Under the pieces are notes generated by a model. That model ran no database searches. It saw nothing but the letters and a program-made list of their open reading frames with translations, and had not been told where the DNA came from. DNA of 64,000 nucleotides, from assembly GCA_019096065.1 (NCBI GenBank), contig JAGUCH010000001.1, forward strand, positions 2,108,001 through 2,172,000, in the 5' to 3' direction. Below are positions 4,001 to 52,000 of this stretch, piece after piece. Position numbers and translations under genes: made by a program. This stretch comes from Paracyclopina nana (taxonomy: Eukaryota > Arthropoda > Copepoda > Cyclopoida > Cyclopettidae). The stretch's first letter is position 1. Every line of letters begins with the position of its first letter.

Positions 4001-7000
4001 ATTTGCATTGCGCGAACAACCTGGTGTTATCAGCCGACTAAAATACACTCATATTTTGCATGTGCATCAATTAACTAAAAAATCAGCTCCACCAGGCTAA
4101 TTTGCATGTTGAAATGGCGCTCTCTCTCTGTCAGATGTGGAAGAATATCTCTTGGAGATTATTTGTGGTGATTCTGGCCTTGCATTTTCATTAATTCATG
4201 TCGTCGTTTTGTGCGCAGACTGAAACCGCTCTGATCTACGATGCGGTTCAAATGTTCGCGAAAGCCCTCACTGATCTGGATCGAAGTCAAGAGGTTCAAA
4301 CTGCCAGCATCGATTGCACCGGACGGGAAACCTGGCAGCATGGAAACTCACTTGTCAACTACATGAAAATGGTACCTTTTACTTCTACTCAATGAATTCT
4401 CATTTCCAATGAGCAATTAATATTCGACTCTTACTGAATGCCATTTATATTTTTTATAATATCTTGCGAGTTTCGTTTCGGTTTGAGCTCAGTGGATTAA
4501 TTTTAAGTTGCAAAATCTCTATAGTTCAAACGAGTGTTTTTACAGGCTGCTTGATTAAGAAAAAATCTGATGACATGGAAAAAATAACTCTTTTGAGTTT
4601 CTGTCAAATTTTTAAGCAGGCATTTTTTAAAAATGGAAGTCACATTTTTCCCGGATCAGGCTGAATAGCATAATTTTCATTAGGTTGAGCTTGAGGGGCT
4701 AACCGGAAAAATCAAGTTTGACAGCCTCGGATTTCGCTCGGATTTCAACCTCGACATCATAGAGCTGAAAAAAGAAGGCCTGGTTCAAGTTGGCGTGTGG
4801 AATCAAGGATCCGGAGCGAATTTCACCAGGAATTACACCGAGTCATATTCGGAAATTGTGGAGAGCCTCCACAACAAAACCCTCAAAATCACCACAATTT
4901 TGGTAATTTTTCATTCTAGACGACATGTTTTTTTTAATATGTATTTTTGTGTGGTAGAATGAACCTTACACAATGTACCGCGAGAACTCTGAGGCTCTGT
5001 CTGGCAATGACAGATTTGAGGGCTACAATGTGGACTTGATTGACGAAGTGTCCAAAATCCTGGGCTTTAACTACACCATCAACATTGTGGCTGATGGGAA
5101 ATATGGGAGCTACAATGCCAAAAACAAAACGTGGAACGGCATGGTGGGAGAATTGCTGTCCCAGGTAATTCCGGAATTACAGAGGCGCAACTAATTGCAC
5201 TTTAATTCACGCAACCTTCATTTAACATGCAGAAAGCAGATTTAGCAGTGGCCGACTTGACAATCACCTATGAACGCGAGCAAGGTGTGGATTTCACCAT
5301 GCCCTTCATGAACTTGGGTAACGAAAAAAGCTATTTCAGACTATAGTGATTTTTGATTATATTTTGATTATGCAAGGTGTGACCATCCTGTTTAAGAAGC
5401 CAACTGCCAAAGATCCCAATTTATTCAGCTTTTTGTCTCCTTTGTCACTTGGTGTGTGGATCTACATAGTGACAGCTTATCTGGCTGTGTCTTTGCTCCT
5501 CTATGTTATTGCGAGGTAAGGCTCCCCTTTTTTTAATGTCTCGTTCATCTATCTCGCATTCATTCTAAAAAAAATTAAGAAGTGAGCTAAATAAGCCAAA
5601 AGATTTGCATTGAATCGACTATCTGAAATTTTCATCGTTATTGTTTTGTTATTATAGTAACTTCATTTATTTAACTTTGAGGTTGAAACGAAAAAGGTGG
5701 CTTCAAAGTATTTTCACATTTTTTGAAGAGCTCACTGTCCTAGTTAATAGAGTCGAATTTACAGCAATTTTGCGTACTAGCTTGCATGCATTATTTTTAA
5801 GTGAACCCTTTTTTGAAAGGAGATGAGGAGTGCATTATGAAATCTGGGATGCAATTCATGATTAGAAAGCAGTTGGTTGCATAGTTGCTCTGAGTTGAAA
5901 AAGAGACATTTGGTTGCCAAGCTACCACGACGAGCTGGTGATGTTTTGGTTGGAGGCCTCATTTGTAGAAGAAGCCACTACGACTTGTTGTGGCACTAAT
6001 GGAGCTGATGGCAGAAAGTGTGGGCATGCGAGTTTTTACGGCCTCTCTGGCCTCCCTTCATTTGGTCATCTTTTTCACTTCTCTGGTCACCAATTTCGTG
6101 GCCTCCGACCTCGCGTCCTCGGGCTCCAAGGTGAAAGCTGACAAAAAGTCGAAGCTCTTCTGGAGGCTCACCGTGCTCCAGTGTCGAATTGCTCAGTTTG
6201 ACAACCTGTGCAGGCTCCCCTTGATTGCCAGGCTGTTTTTCTGGGCTCACGACGACATCTTCCTACTTGAGGTGAAATATCCAATTGGGCCTTTAATTAA
6301 TAATAACTATCCTTCTTTTGAAAAAAGGCTTTAATGAGGCCTGGCGTTTTCTTCACTTTTTACCTGGCAGCCATTTTCAGCTGCACTGCAGTCTTTTTGG
6401 CTTCAGATTTGTTTACTCTGCTCAGATTGATTCACGTCTTCTATGCACACTAGGCCAGGGAGGCTTCATTTTGTCCGTTTTGGCCAAAATCGGAAATCAG
6501 TATTTTTCAACTTTTTTTGCTTTAACACTTAGTTTATGGTCCAACTAATCCAAATTCACTCAGCAGAGACATATGAGCTCAGTTCAGCTGATCATAAATG
6601 CCTGATTTTGAGATCAAGTAAAAACTTGGAAAAAAGCAGCCAAAAAGTATGGCAAAGAAAATGGTGACAAACAACCTGTTCTAAGCTGGATACCTATAAC
6701 AATTTGTATTTCTGTATGATTTTTGATCTTACTGAAATTATTCAAGCATTTGCAGTTGATTTTGCCTGATAGTAAATGCCCCAAAATTGGCCTCAAAAAA
6801 GCTGTTCACTTACTAGAACAAAATTAAAACAAAATATGCTGTACTTTCTTGGATCAGCATGGATCACCGAAATTCATGGCTTAAGAGTCTCTCTGACACT
6901 CAAATACATGATTCCAATTGAATTTAGCTGCTACATTTTGCAACCTTGGAAGTTTTGGGAGGCCAAAAAGTCAAATTTTGCTATTATTTTGGAGCGCCAT

Positions 7001-11895: not shown

Positions 11896-12540
11896 CTGGT
11901 TAAAGGCTAATCGGTAAAAGGCTATTTGGTGTAAGGCTAATTGGTAAAAGGCAAAATGGTGAAAGGCCAATTGGCTAAAAGGCTAGATTGGTGAAAGGCT
12001 ACCAAAGAAGGCTAAATTGATAACGTTACTAGAGTACAAATTATTTAATGACATTGATCATTGAAGTTAGAGCAAGGAAAATCAGCTGTATCTGTTAAGT
12101 GTTGAGCGAAATAACTGTTTTTCATTGCCAAATTTTTGCCAACTTTTGAAATAAGCAGCTGCTTTTGCTTTAAATGTTACAGGTTTGCTTAGCTTTTTCA
12201 CCTTAGCTTAGCTTTTTCTTCCTTATTCTCAACAAACTAAATTAGCTTGGTCAGTCAAGTAAAGACAAGTAAGTCTTGTTTGTAAAATGTTCCTTTGTAC
12301 AGATCCAAGTCTTTTTAGTAATTCCTAAGCTAAGCCCAAAAAAGCAGTTTTGTGCCACAAAAAAATGAAACTGAGATTAACCAGGAAAATTAAAAGATAG
12401 TGATATGTCACTTGTGAACCAATCAAACACTGTCACTCACCTTTTTTATATAGCTTTTTACCAATGTAACCTTTGGCCAATTTGCCTTTAACCAATTAGC
12501 CTTACTCCAAATAGCCTATTGCCGATTAGCCTTTAACCAG
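11896..12540. mobile_element. Foldback (long inverted repeat) element with 15-bp repeat arms
   Basis: The left arm is a run of about 15-base units of the type GGTAAAAGGCTAATT (11898-12020). The right arm (about 12460-12540) carries the reverse complement of the same units. The outermost bases, CTGGTTAAAGGCTAATCGG and its complement, match and are flanked by TA on both sides (11894-11895, 12541-12542). The interior has no open frame of note. The architecture fits a non-autonomous foldback element with TA target duplication; the family assignment is inference. Confidence 0.75.
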
Positions 12541-13052: not shown

Positions 13053-13132
13053 TGACAGCGGTGGGATTCGAACCCACGCCCTTTCGGACTGGTGCCTAAA
13101 ACCAGCGCCTTAGACCACTCGGCCACGCTGCC
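13053..13132 (-). tRNA. tRNA-Leu, anticodon TAG
   Basis: On the minus strand a full type II cloverleaf can be folded. The acceptor stem is GGCAGCG against CGCTGTC with one G-U pair. It has a D-arm with GAGTGGTCTAAGG, an anticodon stem CTGGT/ACCAG closing the loop TTTAGGC (anticodon TAG), a variable arm, and a T-arm GTGGG-TTCGAAT-CCCAC. The discriminator is A. No intron is present. It lies head-to-head with the IMP-L2-like gene, 38 nt from its ATG. Confidence 0.95.
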
Positions 13133-40086: not shown

Positions 40087-43000
40087 ATGGACGATCCAGA
40101 GGCTGAAGATATGGAGGCCAATGGGTATCTGAGAGAGACCATCATGAGCCTTCATAGGGCCTCCATGAACAAGGACGAACGTGTCAGATTGGCCAGTTTG
40201 AACTCATTAGTGGAAATGGCCTCTGATGGTGAATTGGGGCCCTTAGTGGTGCAAACGTGGCTAGAGCAATTTGCTCGCGTTAATGGGGGAAATGGTGAAT
40301 ATTGTGGAAACGACCGAGTCAGGCTCCTTCGGTCAATGATGACCATTGCTGATAATTTAATGTCCAATGGCAACGCCTCCAACGACAGCAATGCCTTCAG
40401 GTAAGTCTGCCTGTTTTTATCAATTTTCATCATAATAACTCTTTAATTAGGGCTGCTGTGGGCCGAACTGTCAGCTTGGCTGTGGAAGAAATGACGCGGA
40501 CCTCTGAGGTCGTCGAGGCGGTGCAGAAGCCATGCTCGAAAATCCTGGTGAGACTTGGCTCCAAAAGGCACGTGGACAAAGTCATGGATGCAGTCTTGTC
40601 CAAATTCCAGCCTGGAGCTGCCTCTCATTTCTACGTTTTGACCACTTTGAGTGAGCTAGCCACGTCCAATCCTTCTCACGTCGTCCCGTTTCTCAAGGCC
40701 ATCCTGGGCACAATGTTGGCAAACATGAAGAGTGTGAAAAAGGACCAATTGAGGTGCCGAAATTGCTTTCAAATACAGGAACCAGATTTTAATGATGACA
40801 TTTCAGATTTGCTTATGCAAATGCCTTCAGCCGGTTCTCCGAGGCCATTCTGGACTATTTGGCCAATATCGAGGCTGCACCAGACCAGTCAGTGACCAAG
40901 GAGCATTTCGTGACTGAAATTGACTCGGCGCACGAGATCCTCTTCAATATTTGGCTAAATGGCAAAGGCATGAGCTTGACGCCCAAATTCGAGGCCGGCT
41001 CAAAGGTCAAAAACGCTGTGATCGAAGCTCTGGGCTTCATGGCTCCCTTGCTATCCGATGAAAGGCTGTACAGAAATGCGGCCTCCCCTGTATGCTCCAC
41101 ATTACTAGGTAAATATTATGTCCATCAAGATACTGCAAGTAGTATCTTAAAGGATCTCAATTTGTTGGCAGGCTTGTATAAAAAGGTCCCGGAGCCCTTC
41201 TATTTGACCCAGTGTGTGTGCAACTTGTTAAAGGCCATGCTTGACAGGGACATTCAGCTCATCGACGGAATAGCGGAGCCCCTCTTCACAGCCTTATTTG
41301 TTCAAGTTTGCCAATTTTCTGCCTCGAGCAGTGACCTCGACTCAAAAAGGCGCAACCACTATGAGGTTTTGAGGACGTACGACCTCCTTGTTCGCAGCCA
41401 CACCGACAAACTCGTCACTGGCCTTATGCTGAGGTTGAACAGTGTGGACGAAAATATCCGAGTTTCAGCCTTGATTGTCTTCAAACACCTTCTCAACTCC
41501 TCCATGGACGTGTTGGCCTCCAAAATGACTGATCTCTTGAACAGCCTCCATTCGAGGCTGGCCGAGACCTCGAATAGGGTGAGGAAAATGCTGGCCCAAA
41601 TTGTGGCCTTGGTCGCGAGTTTGGGCTACCTGGAGGGCGAAAAAGGCCAAGATTTCCTCGAGTTCATCGTGAAGCTGTGTGCCCTACCAGACCAGCCTCA
41701 AGATGGCGGACATCAGGCCTCCGAGTACATTTTGAACTATTTGACCTCCGACTACAATGGAGGCTCTGTGGTGACCAACTCCAGCCTGAAGGACATGTGT
41801 GATAATATCCTCATGCTGTTGACCAAGGAGGCCATGGAGGCCGTTTTGTGGCCCAAACTTGTCGACTATTTATTAGCTCCGGATTACACTGAGGCTGTGC
41901 CCTCTTTGATCAAAAGCTTGGCTGCCCTCTGCTCCAAAGCCAATTTCGGCCAGGAAATTGACTATGAGAAGCTGAAGTTTCTCAAAGGCCCCTATGACCT
42001 TTTGGCAAGACTGATTGTGCTGGCATCTGTGCCCGAAAAGGCTGAGCACGTTCTGGGCTTCATGCTCAGCATCTCCGGACTGATCAACAAGCATTTGAGC
42101 GCTCTGTGGGCCCAAAGGATTCCACTGCTGCAGCACTATTTGGAAAACACCAAAATCAAGGCCAGTCAAGAGCAATGGGAGGAATGGCTGCTTGGCCTTC
42201 TTGATGACACCCTAGCTGAGGTGGATCTGGACGAATGGACTGTGGCCTTTGCAGCCTCCCTGACCCTGCAAATAGGCTTGTATCCTGAGGAGGACAGTAT
42301 GCGAAAAAACTTCCTCTTCAAGGCCCTTGGGAGGGCCTTGAAAAAGGCCAAGGCCAGTAACAGGGTCATCATTGGCGAGCATCTGAATTCAGTTTTCAAG
42401 GCAACCAACCATGACGACGAAGAGCAAAGTGAGGCTTGTGCGTTGACCTTCGGTCACGCGGCCTCTGCTCACCTTGGCCTTGTTCTCGAGAGGCTGGAGA
42501 CTTTGCTGAAATCCGAATTCGGACGCAGATCCACCTCCTTCTTTGGCTTCATGAGGGCTGACACCAAGTCTGAGGATTGCAGCCAAAGGTGCACGATTTT
42601 GAAGGCCGTCGGTGCCACGAGGCTGGCCTCCAAGGCCGATTTGGAGGTGAAGGCTGATGAAATGTGCCAAAAGTTCATCATGCCAGCCATGCAAAGTACG
42701 AGTGGGGGTTTGAAGATGGCGGCCTTGAAGGCCACGTCTGACATAGCCTCGGCCTTGAATGGCCTTCAAGACTTCCGGCTCGCGCACCACTCTGACCTTA
42801 TCCACGAGGCCATCGAGTGTATGAAGGCCAAATCGTGGTCTTTGGCAGAGAAGCACGTGGCCCTCATCACCACGCTAGAACTTGTCAAGTTGCCTCCCTT
42901 CGTATCCCAATTAACAAGGTAAGTGGTTTATTTGCCATCACTTGTCCCCAAAAACAAGATGCTTGAAACTGTTAGCTCTACTTGTCCCTTGAAAGCCCAT

Positions 43001-46000
43001 TTCATAATTAAGCAAATACGGCAAGCATAGTCACAGTTATGATTGCACTGATGTTGCTAATGAGGCTTTTTGCCCCATTTCCATCGTCATCATTTTCAGC
43101 TTTGAACATGTCCTTGACTCTGTCCCAAGTCCCATTATGAGGTCTTGGTTCAATTCCAGACAAAACATGAATCATCACCTTAATTATAATCAGAATCAAG
43201 TTATCATGAGATTTGGTAAAATCAGGGTGTACCTGGTACTCGTCCACGAGTTTTATCCACTGATTGGTATGCTTGGCCTTGAAATCTGGGCCGAGTGCCA
43301 AAAAGACGGAGCGAACATCTGGAAAGCTTCCCTCTTGGTCATATCCTTCGGTGATGTCTTCAAAGCCATGAGCTCCACCTTGAGCTTGTTCTTCTTGATC
43401 ATCACTCCCATCATTTGGTGGAAAATACAAATCCGCATGCATGGGATCCCCACCAAACACTGTGAGATTTTTGGGCGAGAGCACAATGTCATGAACGTAA
43501 TTGGCCTGCTTGATTCTCAGATAGTCAGGAATGTCTGCTTTCTTGTAGATGTTCATGCTGTCACTCCACGTGTGCACCAGATCCTCAAAAACTTGGTCGA
43601 CCTTCGAAGCATTTTTCACCATGATGTTTCCAGATGAGATGATCCGTTCAATACTCTCAATCGTTTCCGGCTTCAGTCCATCTGTGAACCTCTTAAAGGT
43701 CTAAAATGTATTGCTTAGCATCATGACATTTTTTGATAGCTTTTGGTTTGTTTTACCAGTTTTTTGTTCTCGGTCATCCCATGATCACCCAAAATGATAA
43801 AGTTCGTTTTCGAGGTCAGGTTTGCCTGTTCCAGTCCTTCAATGAACTCCTTGATGGCAGCATCAACCTTGGTCACTTCGGTCTTTGTTTCAATTGAGTC
43901 AGGGCCGAATCGGTGCCCAACATTGTCAATATTGGGATAATACACAAAAGCTACTTGAACTTTGCCCTCTGCCAAGTCAGTCGTGACATTGCTAAATGCC
44001 TCTTTTAGCACTTGAATATTGTCAGTATAAGCATTGCCTGAGTCCACATATGGAGTGCAGCTAAATGGCAGGATTTCTTCCCCATCAATTTCAAAAGGTA
44101 CTTGACATTTGGACCAATGATGCAAGGATACGTTCAATCCTTGGTGAGTCAAGGTACTCCAAATGGGTACGTGTCCAGTCCACCATTTTGGATTTTCTGT
44201 CGAGCTGTCATTGCCCAGAGTGAAAAAATACCCATTTTCACGATCTACCATGTCATTATCGAAAATTTGGTGGCTCTCCGAGTACAAGCCTTTAATTTTT
44301 TCAATTTGAGAAATAATGTTAGATTTTTATGGATTTTGAAACCTGTGACGATTGTGGTCCAGGATTGGAAGCTTGAAGAGGGAAAGATGGGCTGAACATA
44401 TTGAGTTGTGACTCCTTGCTCTTGAAATATTTTGTATCCAGGATGCTTGTCAAGCTCGCGAGAGAAGTAGTCCCAACGACATCCATCCAGCATGAGCACG
44501 ACCAAGTTGTTTACCTTTTTGGCATTTTCCACTGGGACTCCTTTGCAAGAAGCAATTGCCGAAATCAAAAGTAAAATTAATCTTGTGGCCATCTTCATCG
44601 ACTGTTGAATTTACACTTATTGACTTTTGATAATTTAGCTAAATAACAATAGAGATAACTGTTATGTTTTTATAACCTTCATCATGGCGCTAGCGCGTCG
44701 TGTTGTAGTAAAATGTAGTAGTATAGTAGTATAGTACGAGCCGCGCTGCCTAACCACACTTTCACCTAAGCAGGATGTGCAATGCTATTCACCTTGACAG
44801 TACATTGTATATACAGTGCTTGGTTGAGAAATAAACTCAGTTGTGGCTTTGTACGAGAGAAGTCAAGTCCCATCATGTAGACACCAAATCCACAACAACT
44901 GGTGGCAGCTCACTTACATGCAGCCCTGGAGGGAACGAGAAGTGAGTGATGCTGTGTCCTATTTAGATGGCTGATAGTGAGGACGAATATTACGAGGACG
45001 AATATTACGAAGAGGCTTCATCAGAGGGAACAATTCGACCTACTGCTCCACCACAAGAGGATAACACAGAAACCTCTGCATTTCCTCAACAATATCTGTT
45101 CACCATGGCTCAGCGTAATATCAAGGCAATTGATGTACCCGAATTTAGTGGGGACCCAGCAGTTGACAAGCTGCAAGCACGAGCATGGGCTAGGAGGATC
45201 GACGATTTAAGAGCCCTTGCCAACGAAAACATCCCAGCTGGACAGCCGCAAAGATGGACGGACGAAATGACGGCCATGTACGCTGCCATGGCACTCAAAG
45301 CCAAGGCAGCACAATGGTATAACACCCTAAAGGAAGAGGGATTTGCTCCTAAAAAGTGGAATGGAGTATCTGGTCTGAAGAAAGAGTTCCTGGATCATTG
45401 GCACCATGAGGCCACTTTAGCCGAACAGTCAGCAGAGCAGGAGGCAAATAAGGTCAATGAAGTTCGTTCCTCCTACCATTCCAACCCTTTAAACTGGTAA
45501 ACGACCAGGGTGGGCTCCGCACCACTGGTCGTCGCAAGGTCGTTGAGCTTTTTCACGCAATCACAAGCTTCAGCCTACTATCCTTGAGTGAGAATACCAA
45601 CCGACCTTTTGTATCAATCCACAGCCTTGGAGCCACCTTTGAAATGTTGTTTGACACTGGCTCCAATATTTCCCTGTTATCGCTTATGGCATTCAGGAGA
45701 ATTGCCCCCCAACTAAGACCTCAGAAAATTACAAATGCTCCTATGTTACGCGCAACTTGTGCTTCCGGAAACCCTTTAAAGATCAATGGACTTTATGAAA
45801 TAGACTGTGTGATAGAAGACTGACAGTTGAGGTGGCCATTTTATGTGTGCGAGGGACTCGCACTTGATGGAATTGTGGGTATTGACCTGATCCATGCTAC
45901 CGGCTTGTTTTATGATCCCATATCGATGAAAATCCGCTCTGCAAATAAGTTTCAACTTGAGGCCAGAACTCAGAAGAAGATGTACATACCCGCCAGAAGT

Positions 46001-49000
46001 GTCGCTACAATTTCCATGCAGCTGAAGAACCAGGATAATGGGCCCATAGCTCACTTTGAAGGACGTCTCCAAAGAAGCGATGCCGTCCAACTTTGCAAGA
46101 AGGATTGCCTCATCCGTTCTAATCAACAAGGAATCGCTAATATTAAGGTTACTAATGCAGGATTATTGCCTTTTGAGATAGACAAGGTTTCTTTCATAGG
46201 GCAAATTTTGAGTGTTGATAAGATTGTCCCAGTACATGATGTGTTTTTAAAAGATAAAAATGTTATAGGGAGGCCTTCTAAACAGGTGGAGGACTACATT
46301 CTAAAGCATGCAAACCTTGATCACCTTTTTCCTAATCTATGTCAGAGTTATTTGAAGTGTTTACTTCGTAATTCTGACATTATTTCCACTTCAGAATTTG
46401 ACTTGGGTGACTGCACCCTGATGAAACACAAATTTGACACACATGACCACCGACCAGTTCATGCTAGACAATTCCAGATTCCCATGTCACATCTTGATGA
46501 AATCAACAAAAGCATTGAAGATTGGCTGGAGATGAACATTTCGGAACCCTACAATTCTCCCTGGAACTCAAGTATTTTCTGTGTGCCCAAGAAACTGCCA
46601 GTTGGAGCTACTGGTTGGAGACCAATGGTCGACTTTAGAAATCGAAGGAATGTTCCTGTTCTTCTGCGAGGTGGTGAACCTCACAATATCACTGTTAAGG
46701 CCATTGAGGACATGGCATTTCTGAAGAAGCCACGAGAGCTTCTGCGAGGTGGTGAACCTCACAATATCACTTTTGAGGCCATGGAGGATATGGCAGTTCT
46801 GAAGAAGTCACGAGGGCTTCTGCAAGGTGGTGAACCTCACAATATCACTTTTGAGGCCATGGAGGACATGGCAGTTCTGAAGAAGTCACAAGGGCTTCTG
46901 CAAGGTGGTGAACCTCACAATATCACTTTTGAGGCCATGGAGGACATGGCAGTTCTGAAGAAGTCATGAGGGCTTCTGCAAGGTGGTGAACCTCACAATA
47001 TCACTTTTGAGGCCATGGAGGACATGGCAGTTCTGAAGAAGTCACGAGGGCTTCTGCAAGGTGGTGAACCTCACAATATCACTTTTGAGGCCATGGAGGA
47101 CATGGCAGTTCTGAAGAAGTCACGAGGGCTTCTGCAAGGTGGTGAACCTCACAATATCACTTTTGAGGCCATGGAGGACATGGCAGTTCTGAAGAAGTCA
47201 TGAGGGCTTCTGCAAGGTGGTGAACCTCATAATATCACTTTTGAGGCCATGGAGGACATGGCAGTTCTGAAGAAGTCACAAGGGCTTCTGCAAGGTGGTG
47301 AACCTCACAATATCACTTTCGAGGCCATGGAGGACATGGCAGTTCTGAAGAAGTCACGAGGGCTTCTGCAAGGTGGTGAACCTCACAATATCACTTTTGA
47401 GGCCATGGAGGATATGGCAGTTCTGAAGAAGTCACGAGGGCTTCTGCAAGGTGGTGAACCTCACAATATCACTTTTGAGGCCATGGAGGACATGGCAGTT
47501 CTGAAGAAGTCACAAGAGCTTCTGCAATGTGGTGAACCTCACAATATCACTTTTGAGGCCATGGAGGACATGGCAGTTCTGAAGAAGTCACGAGGGCTTC
47601 TGCAAGGTGGTGAACCTCACAATATCACTTTTGAGGCCATGGAGGATATGGCAGTTCTGAAGAAGTCACGAGGGCTTCTGCAAGGTGGTGAACCTCACAA
47701 TATCACTTTTGAGGCCATGGAGGACATGGCAGTTCTGAAGAAGCTACGAGAGCTTCTGCGAGGTGGTGAACCTCACACTATTACTGTTGAGGCCATGGAG
47801 GACATGGCAGTTCTGAAGAAGCTACGAGAGCTTCTGCAAAGTGGTGAAACCCACAGTAATTCCGTCGAGGCCATGGAGGCCATGAGGGACATGACAGTAA
47901 TGAAGAAACTTGAGGCCATGAAGGACATGGCAGTAATGAAGAAACTACAAAAGAGTGGTGAAACCCACAGTAATTCCGTTGAGGCCATGGAGGACATGGC
48001 AGTTATGAAGAGGCTACAAGAGAGTGGTGAAACCCACTGTAGCACTGTTGAGGCCATGGAGGACATGGCAGTAATGAAGAAACTACAAAAGAGTGGTGAA
48101 ACCCACAGTAATTCCGTTGAGGCCATGGAGGACATGGCAGTTATGAAGAGGCTACAAGAGAGTGGTGAAACCCACTGTAGCACTGTTGAGGCCATGGAGG
48201 ACATGTCAGTTATGAAGAGGCTACAAGAGAGTCGTGAAACCCACTGTAGCACTGTTGAGGCCATGGAGGACATGGCAGTAATGAAGAAACTACTAGAGAG
48301 TGGTGAAACCCACAGTAATTCCGTCGAGGCCATGGAGAGCCTGGCAGTTATGAAGAATCTCCGGAAATGTATTGAAACCCTAAGTATAGTTGTTGACGCC
48401 ATAGAAGACAGGGCAACCATGAAGAAGCTACAATCTACAGACTTGGTTGTTGCGGCTTTACTTTCCTTTGTTAAACATGGACTTGTACCCAGACAACCTA
48501 AGTGGAAATGGATTATTAAAAGATATGGCCCTATTTTTGAAGTCAAGAATGACTTGTTGTTTGTGATGAGTGGGCCCAAATCAGTGTTGGCAGCACCGGC
48601 TGTTTGTCATGCTGACATTATTAGTGCTGCGCATGCAGCTGTTGGGCACAAGGGCATCAACAAAACCAGTGAAAGAATTCATGAGCAGTATTTTTGGCCT
48701 AGTTTATTGACTGATGTTGAGGAATACATCAGTTCATGTTGGAAATGTGACAAAACCAAACCTGAGCAATCACATCCGAATGTGGAATTGCTGCCCCACC
48801 AGCAACTCAAGGGCCCCCTGGAGAGGGTCCATGCTGACCTCTTTGGACCTTGGAGGGATTCAGATGGAAAGAAGTATATTTTGGTTATCATGGAGTCTGT
48901 TAGTAAGTATGCAGAGTTTGTCACTCTGGTAGACAAACAATCTGACACTGTTGCTGGGGCCATTTTTAATCGATGGATTGCAAGATTCGGCTTGCCAGCT

Positions 49001-52000
49001 GTGCTCATTGCTGATGGAGGGACATTATTCACCTCACAGTTGAGTCAATCTCTTTATAATCTGCTCCGGGTAGATAAGAGCACAACCAGCCCTAGTCACC
49101 CTCAATGCAATTCAGCTGCTGAAGTTATTAATAAGCACACTATAAGTTACTTGCCGAAGATGCTTGATACATCTTCTCCTTTGAGTGAGACAACAAGAAT
49201 GAGTCCATTCTTCCTCCTTTTTGGAGTGCATCCCAGAAAACCATTAATGGATCCAAATATGGTTTTAGATGCCAAGATCAAGCCAGAAAACTTTAGGAAA
49301 GGGTTATTGGTTTGGTTGGATTGCCCAGAACTTCTGAAATTCAACCCGAAAATTCCCCTCAAATCAGAGGAACCAGCTGCCAGCATTGCCTCTCCGATGA
49401 CGACAACACCTCCACTAATTCAGCAAGAACCAGACTCTCCACCTGCGGAAGAGGTACTCATTCATGACGATGTGCATGAACCCACTCAATATGATCAACC
49501 ACCAGACTTGCCGTCAAGAAGTAACCCTGGCTCACCTAGGAAACTACTCAACCGTTTTCGTGACAGCTTCCGAGTGGGACGAGACCCCACAAGCTCATTG
49601 ACACACAATCAGGCTAGAGCTCAACAAGTTTTGATAGAAGACCAGCCTTTACCAGCCAAGTTGCCAGAATACAAGCCTGGCCGGGGCCGACCTAAGAAAA
49701 ATGATGTTTGCCTTAACATGGCTTTGTTACATTTTCTTATTTGACCTGACACCTTACACTTTCTAACTTTTACGACTTGGTGGTGGTTTTGCTAATATCT
49801 TCATCTCCCTGTTAACAACAGCTTTCTTTAGCTTGGGAGGGATGTTATGTTTTTATAACCTTCATCATGGCGCTAGCGCGTCGTGTTGTAGTAAAATGTA
49901 GTAGTATAGTAGTATAGTACGAGCCGCGCTGCCTAACCACACTTTCACCTAAGCAGGATGTGCAATACTATTCACCTTGACAGTACATTGTATATACAGT
50001 GCTTGGTTGAGAAATAAACTCAGTTGTGGCTTTGTACGAGAGAAGTCAAGTCCCATCATGTAGACACCAAATCCACAACATAACGCGCTGGTAACAGAAA
50101 AAGATTTCTTGCTTGATGTGGGTATCTTATATTTGCTCAAGGTTTTTAGGAGTTGTGAAGTGTTTTGAAATCATGAATGCGGTGTTACGTTTACCAAAAA
50201 AGGCATCAAGGCACTCAAATTCTACATAGCCATAGGCGAAGTTATTCCCAACCAGAAATTCAAACGCCCTCAAACGCCATTATAGTTCTCAGTGAAACTC
50301 AGTTTCATGTAGTGATGGAACGAGCCGGGAATTTTCAGCTTGATCAAGCTTCAAGCTTTTAGAAATGTGTTCGAGCGATCCCAAGCTTTTGAAAATAATT
50401 ATGAAGCTTTTTCAAGCTCAAAATTTCACATTTCAAGCTTTTTTGAAGCTTTTCACTTTTTAAGACCTTAGTGTCAAGCTTTTTCAAGCTTTGCATATTT
50501 TGGTTTTCAAGCTTTTTCAAGCTTTTCAAAATTTGGTTCGAGCGATCCCAAGCTTTTTGCTTATGTAGCTCAAGCTGGGTTTTAGCTTCAAGCTTTCAAG
50601 CCAAGCTGAAACTCGTTCCATCACTAGTTTCATGAACATAGAGTTTTAGTATTTTATATACTGTAATACGATTTCCTCGTGTTATAATTCAGTTTACCGA
50701 TCCGACTCAGCTCTTTTATATCACAGTTCTTTCTAAGCAATTTGGGGGATATTAAATACTTAACAGCCCTTGAATCAAATTTGAGAGATTTCATGTATTT
50801 TAATGACCCTCATATCCCATGGAAGTAATGCAAATTCCAAAGAAGTTGGAAAAAGAGAGGATCATCCAGATTCGAACCTCAGACAGTTGGATTAGCATCC
50901 CAATGCTCTAACCACTGAGCTATGGAAACATGTTATGTATAGGACTTAACCATGATTTAAGCCACATAAAGAAATTTAAAAAAAGTCAAGGAATGGCTGG
51001 GGTTTGAACCCTAGACTGCTGAATTAAATGCCGAGCGCTCTAACCATTGTGCCATAGGAGCACCTCTGAAGAGATGGGTTTTGAAAGTCTATTTAATTGC
51101 TCCCAACCCACTGGATGCTAGCTAATGAGAGCCAGTGATATTCACATAGCAACTAAAAACCGAGCAGTATTTTCTAGGGCACGGGGCAGCCCGGTAACTT
51201 CATTAAAACACTCAAAAATCGTATTACAGAATATAAAATTTTATATTCCGAGCTGGGGCACGTAAAATTGGGTCATTAAATAGCTGACCTCGGATTTAAA
51301 AATGGAAAAACACTCGTACAATTACAGCCCTCGCAGGCTCGGGCTAGTAAAGCTGTACTCGAGTTTTCCCATTTTAAAATCCTCGCTCAGCTATTTAATG
51401 ACCCTACTTTACGTGCCCCAGCTCGAAATAAATAACTATTACCTGCTGCTTTTGGGACTGAGAAGGTACGGTAAAAATTGCTCGAGTTTGGTAAACATAA
51501 AACCAAGACAAATCTACCGAGCGTAGCGAGGTCAAAAGTGAGTCGAGGTTTTGACAATGAAAATGACAATTTCGATTTTTTTGCATAGGTGGAGAGCTAT
51601 CTTTGCTCATCAGCTGCTGATGTACAACGCGTTAGCGTGTCAGCTCAGTGGTAAACTGAACATGGCTAAAACAAACAGAACTTGTCTAGAACTAGCTGAA
51701 CTTAACTGATCCAGTAAGGTTGCTGTTTTAGCAAGGTGACTTAAAAATCGTATACGGGATCGCCCTAATGTTACATTGTGACATAAACTCAGCATGGGTA
51801 AAATGAAGGAGTGCTAGCACGTAACAATGACTATCAGAAAACTTGGGAAATTTTCTGGTCGGGTTTATTTTCTCTCAAAAGCCATATTTGACCTTTGAGT
51901 TAGCTCTAGTTTTTTGGAGTTGGAGTTTCAAATCATGAAAGTGGTTTAATTTGCACAAAAGGCGTCGAGACTTTTATTTGGCCCTAGGTGATATGTTTCT

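What the first reader, a model, noticed from the sequence alone, without database searches (positions are those of the whole stretch)
46600..48440. LTR retrotransposon with RT/RNase H replaced by an in-frame repeat array
Reverse transcriptase is recognisable only up to the WRPMVDFRN block. Immediately afterwards come about 1.77 kb of 78-bp and 69-bp coding repeats, and then an integrase with its HHCC finger and D-D35-E spacing. The palm Asp pair and RNase H are absent. Nearly identical LTRs show that this chimeric structure transposed recently, so it was packaged and copied by another element's RT. Gain of a repeat protein module in pol is not a form I know for Ty3/gypsy elements.
Basis: partly seen in the sequence, partly recalled or inferred. 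Interest (0 to 1): 0.85.

Follow-up and report, generated by a model that had tools for sequence, protein, structure and literature searches.

The report
RT-less retrotransposon with expanded pol repeat
This is one of about a dozen copies of a retrotransposon that has lost its own copying enzyme, carries many copies of a short piece of its own gene in that place, and appears to be moved by complete relatives in the same genome.

Summary
The element (44660-50080) has no RT core or RNase H; in their place are 1.77 kb of 78- and 69-bp repeats, in frame between the RT fingers and a damaged integrase. It belongs to a family: at least 14 array loci, of which 12 share the RT-array junction and have paired LTRs with 4-bp target duplications; 8 of 12 have identical LTRs. 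At least 24 near-complete RT/RNase H segments, 97-100% alike, mark full-length relatives.

The array is not a gained module. Its unit occurs once in full-length relatives, in the RNase H-integrase linker, and was multiplied to 11-24 units after RT was lost. 26 of 26 listed single-unit places carry RT/RH; none of 14 array loci has the core. Repeat and pol amino acids show little or no constraint (one search gives weaker relaxation), yet shared coding indels are mostly multiples of three: 7 of 9, against 4 of 16 private and 0 of 9 shared non-coding. The frame may be kept open while its sequence drifts. Verdict: a non-autonomous Ty3/gypsy family, a new variant of a known kind.

The parts
44656..44659 (.). 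target site duplication TAAC, left copy
44660..44897 (+). 5' LTR, 238 bp, TG...CA
44900..44909 (+). primer binding site TGGTGGCAGC; 9 of 10 bases match the tRNA-Leu gene in the window, so a tRNA-Leu primer is likely (inferred)
44967..45500 (+). gag, 177 codons, shortened by a 621-bp in-frame deletion private to this copy (join at about 45430-45434, 5-bp overlap)
45640..46639 (+). protease (DTGS at 45653) and RT fingers up to VDFRN, with one TGA at 45821
46640..46660 (+). RT-to-array junction, the same in all 12 copies of the clade
46661..47884 (+). 78-bp units of the array, derived from the RNase H-integrase linker; two TGA at 46967 and 47201
47885..48433 (+). 69-bp units of the array and a degenerate last unit adjoining integrase
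48434..49744 (+). integrase remnant: H2C2 finger and D,D35E spacing present; 6, 51, 114 and 297 bp missing relative to full-length relatives
49817..49842 (+). purine-rich tract next to the 3' LTR, identical in all 14 copies printed (10 array, 4 full-length)
49843..50080 (+). 3' LTR, 237 of 238 identical to the 5' LTR
50081..50084 (.). target site duplication TAAC, right copy

Best explanation
A copy of a non-autonomous Ty3/gypsy-type LTR retrotransposon family. Shown: full-length relatives exist in the same genome; the array family lost the RT core and RNase H, and the single 25-codon linker segment between RNase H and integrase is present there as 11-24 tandem units; the family is dispersed with paired LTRs and target duplications and is young. 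Inferred: its RNA is packaged in particles made by full-length relatives and copied and integrated by their enzymes in trans (LTR ends and polypurine tract the same, primer site nearly so); unit number grows and shrinks by strand transfer or slippage during reverse transcription; expansion is tolerated because the linker and the rest of pol no longer work in cis, while in full-length copies purifying selection keeps the unit single.
For: 14 array loci. 12 of 12 clade members have LTR pairs and 4-bp target duplications; 8 of 12 have identical LTRs. The RT/RH segment is absent from all 14 array elements apart from scraps of at most 63 bp in the two oldest. 24 RT/RH segments at 97-100%. Unit once in each of 7 full-length copies inspected and at 26 listed places, each next to an RT/RH match. 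One junction in 12 of 12. Array length 807-1794 bp, differing even between copies with identical LTRs and backbones within 6 bp. Full-length copies under purifying selection, omega 0.18-0.25; array copies 0.77-1.07, not distinguishable from neutral.
Against: No transcript, particle or transposition data. The source of the enzymes is inferred from likeness. Slippage during reverse transcription is not separated from unequal exchange in the genome. Uncorrected pN/pS within the array family is 0.47-0.66, which by itself would suggest some remaining constraint. The primer sites differ by a one-base insertion after the first 10 bases.
Confidence: 0.85

Rival explanations
1. The array is a selected repeat protein module with a job in the fusion protein (spacer, binding or oligomerisation).
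For: Units of 78 and 69 bp are multiples of 3 and the frame runs through in 12 of 12 clade copies; no stops in the array in 10 of 12.
Against: Distinct unit variants: 41 replacement, 10 silent, 2 stop, against 35.9, 13.7 and 3.4 expected. AlphaFold2 gave mean pLDDT 45.7, pTM 0.39, no confident fold, from only 4 near-identical sequences. Unit number varies from 11 to 24. No protein with the array was found elsewhere (a capped candidate list).
Confidence: 0.07
2. The array restores RNA length lost by the deletions, for packaging.
For: The copy with the largest gag deletion, the window, has the longest array. Array elements are 5.0-5.75 kb against 5.9 kb for full-length ones.
Against: Across 12 copies array and backbone length are not correlated (Spearman 0.07, P 0.83), and total length varies by 700 bp.
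Confidence: 0.08
3. The array was captured from a host gene or satellite.
For: None found.
Against: The unit is in the full-length relatives at the site adjoining integrase; all 50 rows fall in array loci or at single-unit places next to RT/RH.
Confidence: 0.01
4. Assembly collapse or mis-join.
For: Tandem arrays are hard to assemble; exact unit numbers may be off. A one-base indel site at IN position 841 recurs in three array copies and one full-length copy and may be sequencing error.
Against: 12 separate loci, each with its own target duplication, share the junction.
Confidence: 0.01

Closest known systems
Non-autonomous LTR retrotransposons and their autonomous partners (RLC_Angela, RLG_Sabrina/WHAM in wheat, BARE2; PMC9744471, passages read)
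   Same: Lack working enzymes, move recently, share LTR ends with full-length partners; LTR subfamilies pair with partner subfamilies.
   Different: The wheat non-autonomous Angela has a degenerate CDS with many frameshifts and stops; here the frame stays largely open and a pol segment is amplified.
Tandem arrays in Ty3/gypsy elements: Ogre (PMC7004042, passages), Gmr9/GmOgre (PMC3305785, abstract), Retand (PMC11963269, passages); Zea element of Monfort et al. 1995 (reference line only)
   Same: Variable minisatellite arrays inside active LTR elements; strand transfer between co-packaged copies is the mechanism proposed for Ogre.
   Different: Those arrays lie between pol and the 3' LTR, outside gag-pol; this one is made of a pol coding segment, lies inside pol and stands in place of RT/RNase H.
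Mini-Ty1 donor-helper system (PMC4974528, passages)
   Same: Internally deleted elements transpose when proteins come in trans.
   Different: Engineered; no array.

Membership tests
Ty3/gypsy LTR retrotransposon (domain order recalled) | Paired LTRs TG...CA and short target duplication | tested here: met
Ty3/gypsy LTR retrotransposon (domain order recalled) | PR-RT-RNase H-integrase order | tested here: not met
   Met by full-length relative L038 (RVT_1 320-481, RNase H 550-677, H2C2 788-840, rve 857-953); in the window RT core and RNase H are absent. It is a derivative of the family, not a full member.
Ty3/gypsy LTR retrotransposon (domain order recalled) | Clade placement by RT tree against named elements | not tested
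Non-autonomous LTR retrotransposon family | Lacks an enzyme needed for transposition | tested here: met
Non-autonomous LTR retrotransposon family | Several copies with own target duplications and similar LTRs | tested here: met
   12 of 12
Non-autonomous LTR retrotransposon family | Shares LTR ends, primer site and polypurine tract with an autonomous partner | tested here: met
   LTR starts and purine tract identical in 14 of 14 printed; first 10 bases of the primer site identical, then a one-base difference
Non-autonomous LTR retrotransposon family | Mobilised in trans by the partner | not testable with these tools
   needs expression or particle data
Tandem-array Ty3/gypsy elements (Ogre/Retand kind) | Array between pol and 3' LTR | tested here: not met
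   array lies within pol, before integrase

The most novel reading that the evidence does not exclude
Selection in this parasite lineage acts on the openness of the pol frame and not on its amino acids: after RT was lost, deletions and array units that keep the frame were passed on and frame-breaking ones were not, because the RNA must be translatable through pol to be stable or packaged in cis. An RT-less element would then still pay for translation of a protein whose sequence does not matter.
Probability: 0.28. Interest if true: 0.65.

Novelty: new variant of a known kind. Interest (0 to 1): 0.45.

Why it matters
It is a compact natural system, parent and parasite in one 92-Mb genome, for asking what a defective retrotransposon must keep in cis. 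The contrast of in-frame shared indels with unconstrained codons makes the role of translation of the genomic RNA testable. It also shows a coding pol segment turning into a minisatellite, where the arrays in the papers read here lie outside gag-pol.

Tried and rejected
Host capture of the repeat: rejected. Length compensation: no correlation. Repeat protein fold: AlphaFold2 model not usable (mean pLDDT 45.7), so no fold search was made. Homologues of the array protein: none at E <= 0.001 among the 7997 best candidates. Host identity: ten homologues of a neighbouring gene bore no useful name. The two old copies L032 and L033 were examined as intermediates: both keep RT scraps and share the degenerate last unit; L033 still has integrase segments that the other 12 lack. 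Whether their RT-array junctions were ancestrally in frame stayed inconclusive (L033 out of frame, L032 in frame overall but with a stop). LTR exchange with the parent: suggestive only. In one search the array copies are still one side of a branch in the 3'-end tree (94/99); with four more full-length 3' ends the window type groups with them at 87/98, under the starred level. Their RT region was not fetched, so discordance was not tested.

Full report
What is there. The window lies at G000:C1:2108001-2172000 of a 92-Mb genome in 10 contigs; no call names the organism. Between TAAC target duplications lies a 5421-bp element with 238-bp LTRs that match at 237 of 238 bases. It has a shortened gag, a protease, RT up to VDFRN, a tandem array at 46661-48433, and an integrase remnant. 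Pfam finds no RT or RNase H in its ORFs.

The family. A search of the genome with 1000 bp of the array gave 50 rows (41 candidates, 40 scored, so a lower bound). 24 rows fall in 14 array loci and 26 are single 75-bp matches. I fetched the 13 other array loci and 7 of the single-unit places. Twelve array loci (window, L021-L031) have LTR pairs with 4-bp target duplications, 12 of 12; 8 of 12 have identical LTRs, the others 237/238, 236/238, 234/238 and 233 matches with 4 mismatches and 3 gap columns. The RT-array junction is the same in 12 of 12 and the reading from RT through the array to integrase keeps frame in 12 of 12, with stops inside the array only in the window (2) and L022 (1). Unit counts are 11 to 24. 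One array element (L030) sits inside a full-length copy.

The parent. All 7 single-unit places fetched are full-length elements of 5.9 kb with LTR pairs and 4-bp target duplications. In L038 gag and a 1307-codon pol are open, with RVT_1, RNase H, H2C2 and rve. Over the regions examined 4 of 7 show no stop or frameshift, L034, L039 and L040 do, and for L039 the RT/RH stretch was not read. A 1000-bp RT/RH probe gave 24 full-length matches at 97-100% (77 candidates, 40 scored). Each of the 26 single-unit places lies next to such a match, 23 full and 3 partial. The 14 array elements have no RT/RH beyond scraps of 48-63 bp in L032 and L033. So in this sample expansion occurs only where RT is gone.

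Origin of the array. In the parent the unit, ELLRGGETHSVAIEAMEDMAAMKKLQ, is read once between the RNase H end GAENPADYCSR and the integrase region. A homologue with 52% identity over this stretch has a linker of similar length; none of the 14 printed relatives shows tandem units. The array is therefore an expansion of the family's own linker. L032 and L033, older and decayed, have shorter arrays with the same degenerate last unit, so the array predates the clade; L033 still has the two integrase segments that the 12 lack, so the array and RT loss came before those integrase deletions.

Constraint. A permutation that keeps the change type and CpG state of each difference gives omega 0.77 (gag), 0.91 (protease-RT5') and 1.07 (integrase) in the array family, none significant, and 0.18, 0.25, 0.21 in the 7 full-length copies (P <= 0.0003 each). 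Plain pairwise pN/pS is lower, 0.47, 0.62 and 0.66 in the array family against 0.11, 0.20 and 0.15, so weak remaining constraint, or exchange with the parent, is not excluded. Among 111 units, distinct variants are 41 replacement, 10 silent and 2 stop, expected 35.9, 13.7, 3.4: no sign of a conserved repeat protein.

Open frame without constraint. From the indel catalogue (L022 left out for integrase, L032 and L033 left out throughout) coding indels shared by at least two array copies are -15, -3, -6, -3, -51, -114, -297 (multiples of 3) and +1 at integrase 841 and -1 at 1731, three codons before the end (not). Private ones: 4 of 16 multiples of 3. Shared non-coding ones: 0 of 9. Fisher P = 0.0023 against non-coding and 0.017 against private; binomial 0.008 against one third. 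Shared stops are 0 where 4.8 would be expected over three regions (Poisson 0.008; each region alone is not significant, P 0.14-0.32). The numbers are small, the classification is mine by hand, one private +1 lies between gag stop and the first pol ATG, and some shared indels could predate RT loss; those surely later (-51, -114, -297 and the clade-specific ones) give 6 of 8, P = 0.02 (which took L033 as the marker). Against the idea: 4 of 12 copies have a broken gag, and several with identical LTRs have frame-breaking private indels, so one round of transposition does not need an intact frame; 3 of 12 have both frames open.

Relations with the parent. In the protease-RT5' tree the 12 copies are one clade at 100/100. 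Their 3' ends fall in two kinds: L021, L023, L024, L027, L028, L029, L031 are 95.5-97.9% like L038 in the last integrase part, the window, L022, L025, L030 88-89%. With four more full-length 3' ends the second kind groups with them (87/98). This resembles the pairing of LTR subfamilies described in wheat (PMC9744471, passages), but it is suggestive only.

How it works. Most likely the RNA of the array family is packaged and copied by parent enzymes, as with mini-Ty1 (PMC4974528, passages). Unit number changes by strand transfer, as was proposed for Ogre arrays (PMC7004042, passages); copies with backbones of 4268-4274 bp and identical LTRs have arrays of 942 to 1473 bp. This step is inferred.

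Known or new. Arrays in Ogre, Gmr9 and Retand lie between pol and the 3' LTR; a review (section 2.2) lists ORF-derived satellites too, so coding origin of tandem repeats is known. Seven searches of the open library, of which I saw titles and abstract starts of at most 20 papers each, listed no element with a pol-segment array in place of RT. That is weak evidence of absence from print. I file it as a new variant of a known kind.

Noticed in passing
L030:2852-7893: An array element is inserted inside a full-length copy of its parent family, with target duplication TTTC.
   Followed up: partly
L022:5653-6213: Integrase region rearranged, with an inverted 239-bp stretch of the array (99%) at 5936-6174.
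   Followed up: no
G000, e.g. C3:8869278-8869823 and C9:1110925-1111470: A second family about 68% like the parent's RT; 11 rows with nearly the same score.
   Followed up: no
11897-12001 and 12451-12539: Two short tandem arrays of 15-bp units that look like reverse complements of each other.
   Followed up: no
45-149: 12-bp tandem repeat, 8.8 copies.
   Followed up: no
40859-42922: Host gene whose homologues carry PF23210 and PF23221.
   Followed up: partly
50340-50640: Stretch rich in TCAAGCTTTTT motifs beside the element.
   Followed up: no
13053-13132: tRNA-Leu gene whose 3' end matches 9 of 10 bases of the element's primer site.
   Followed up: partly
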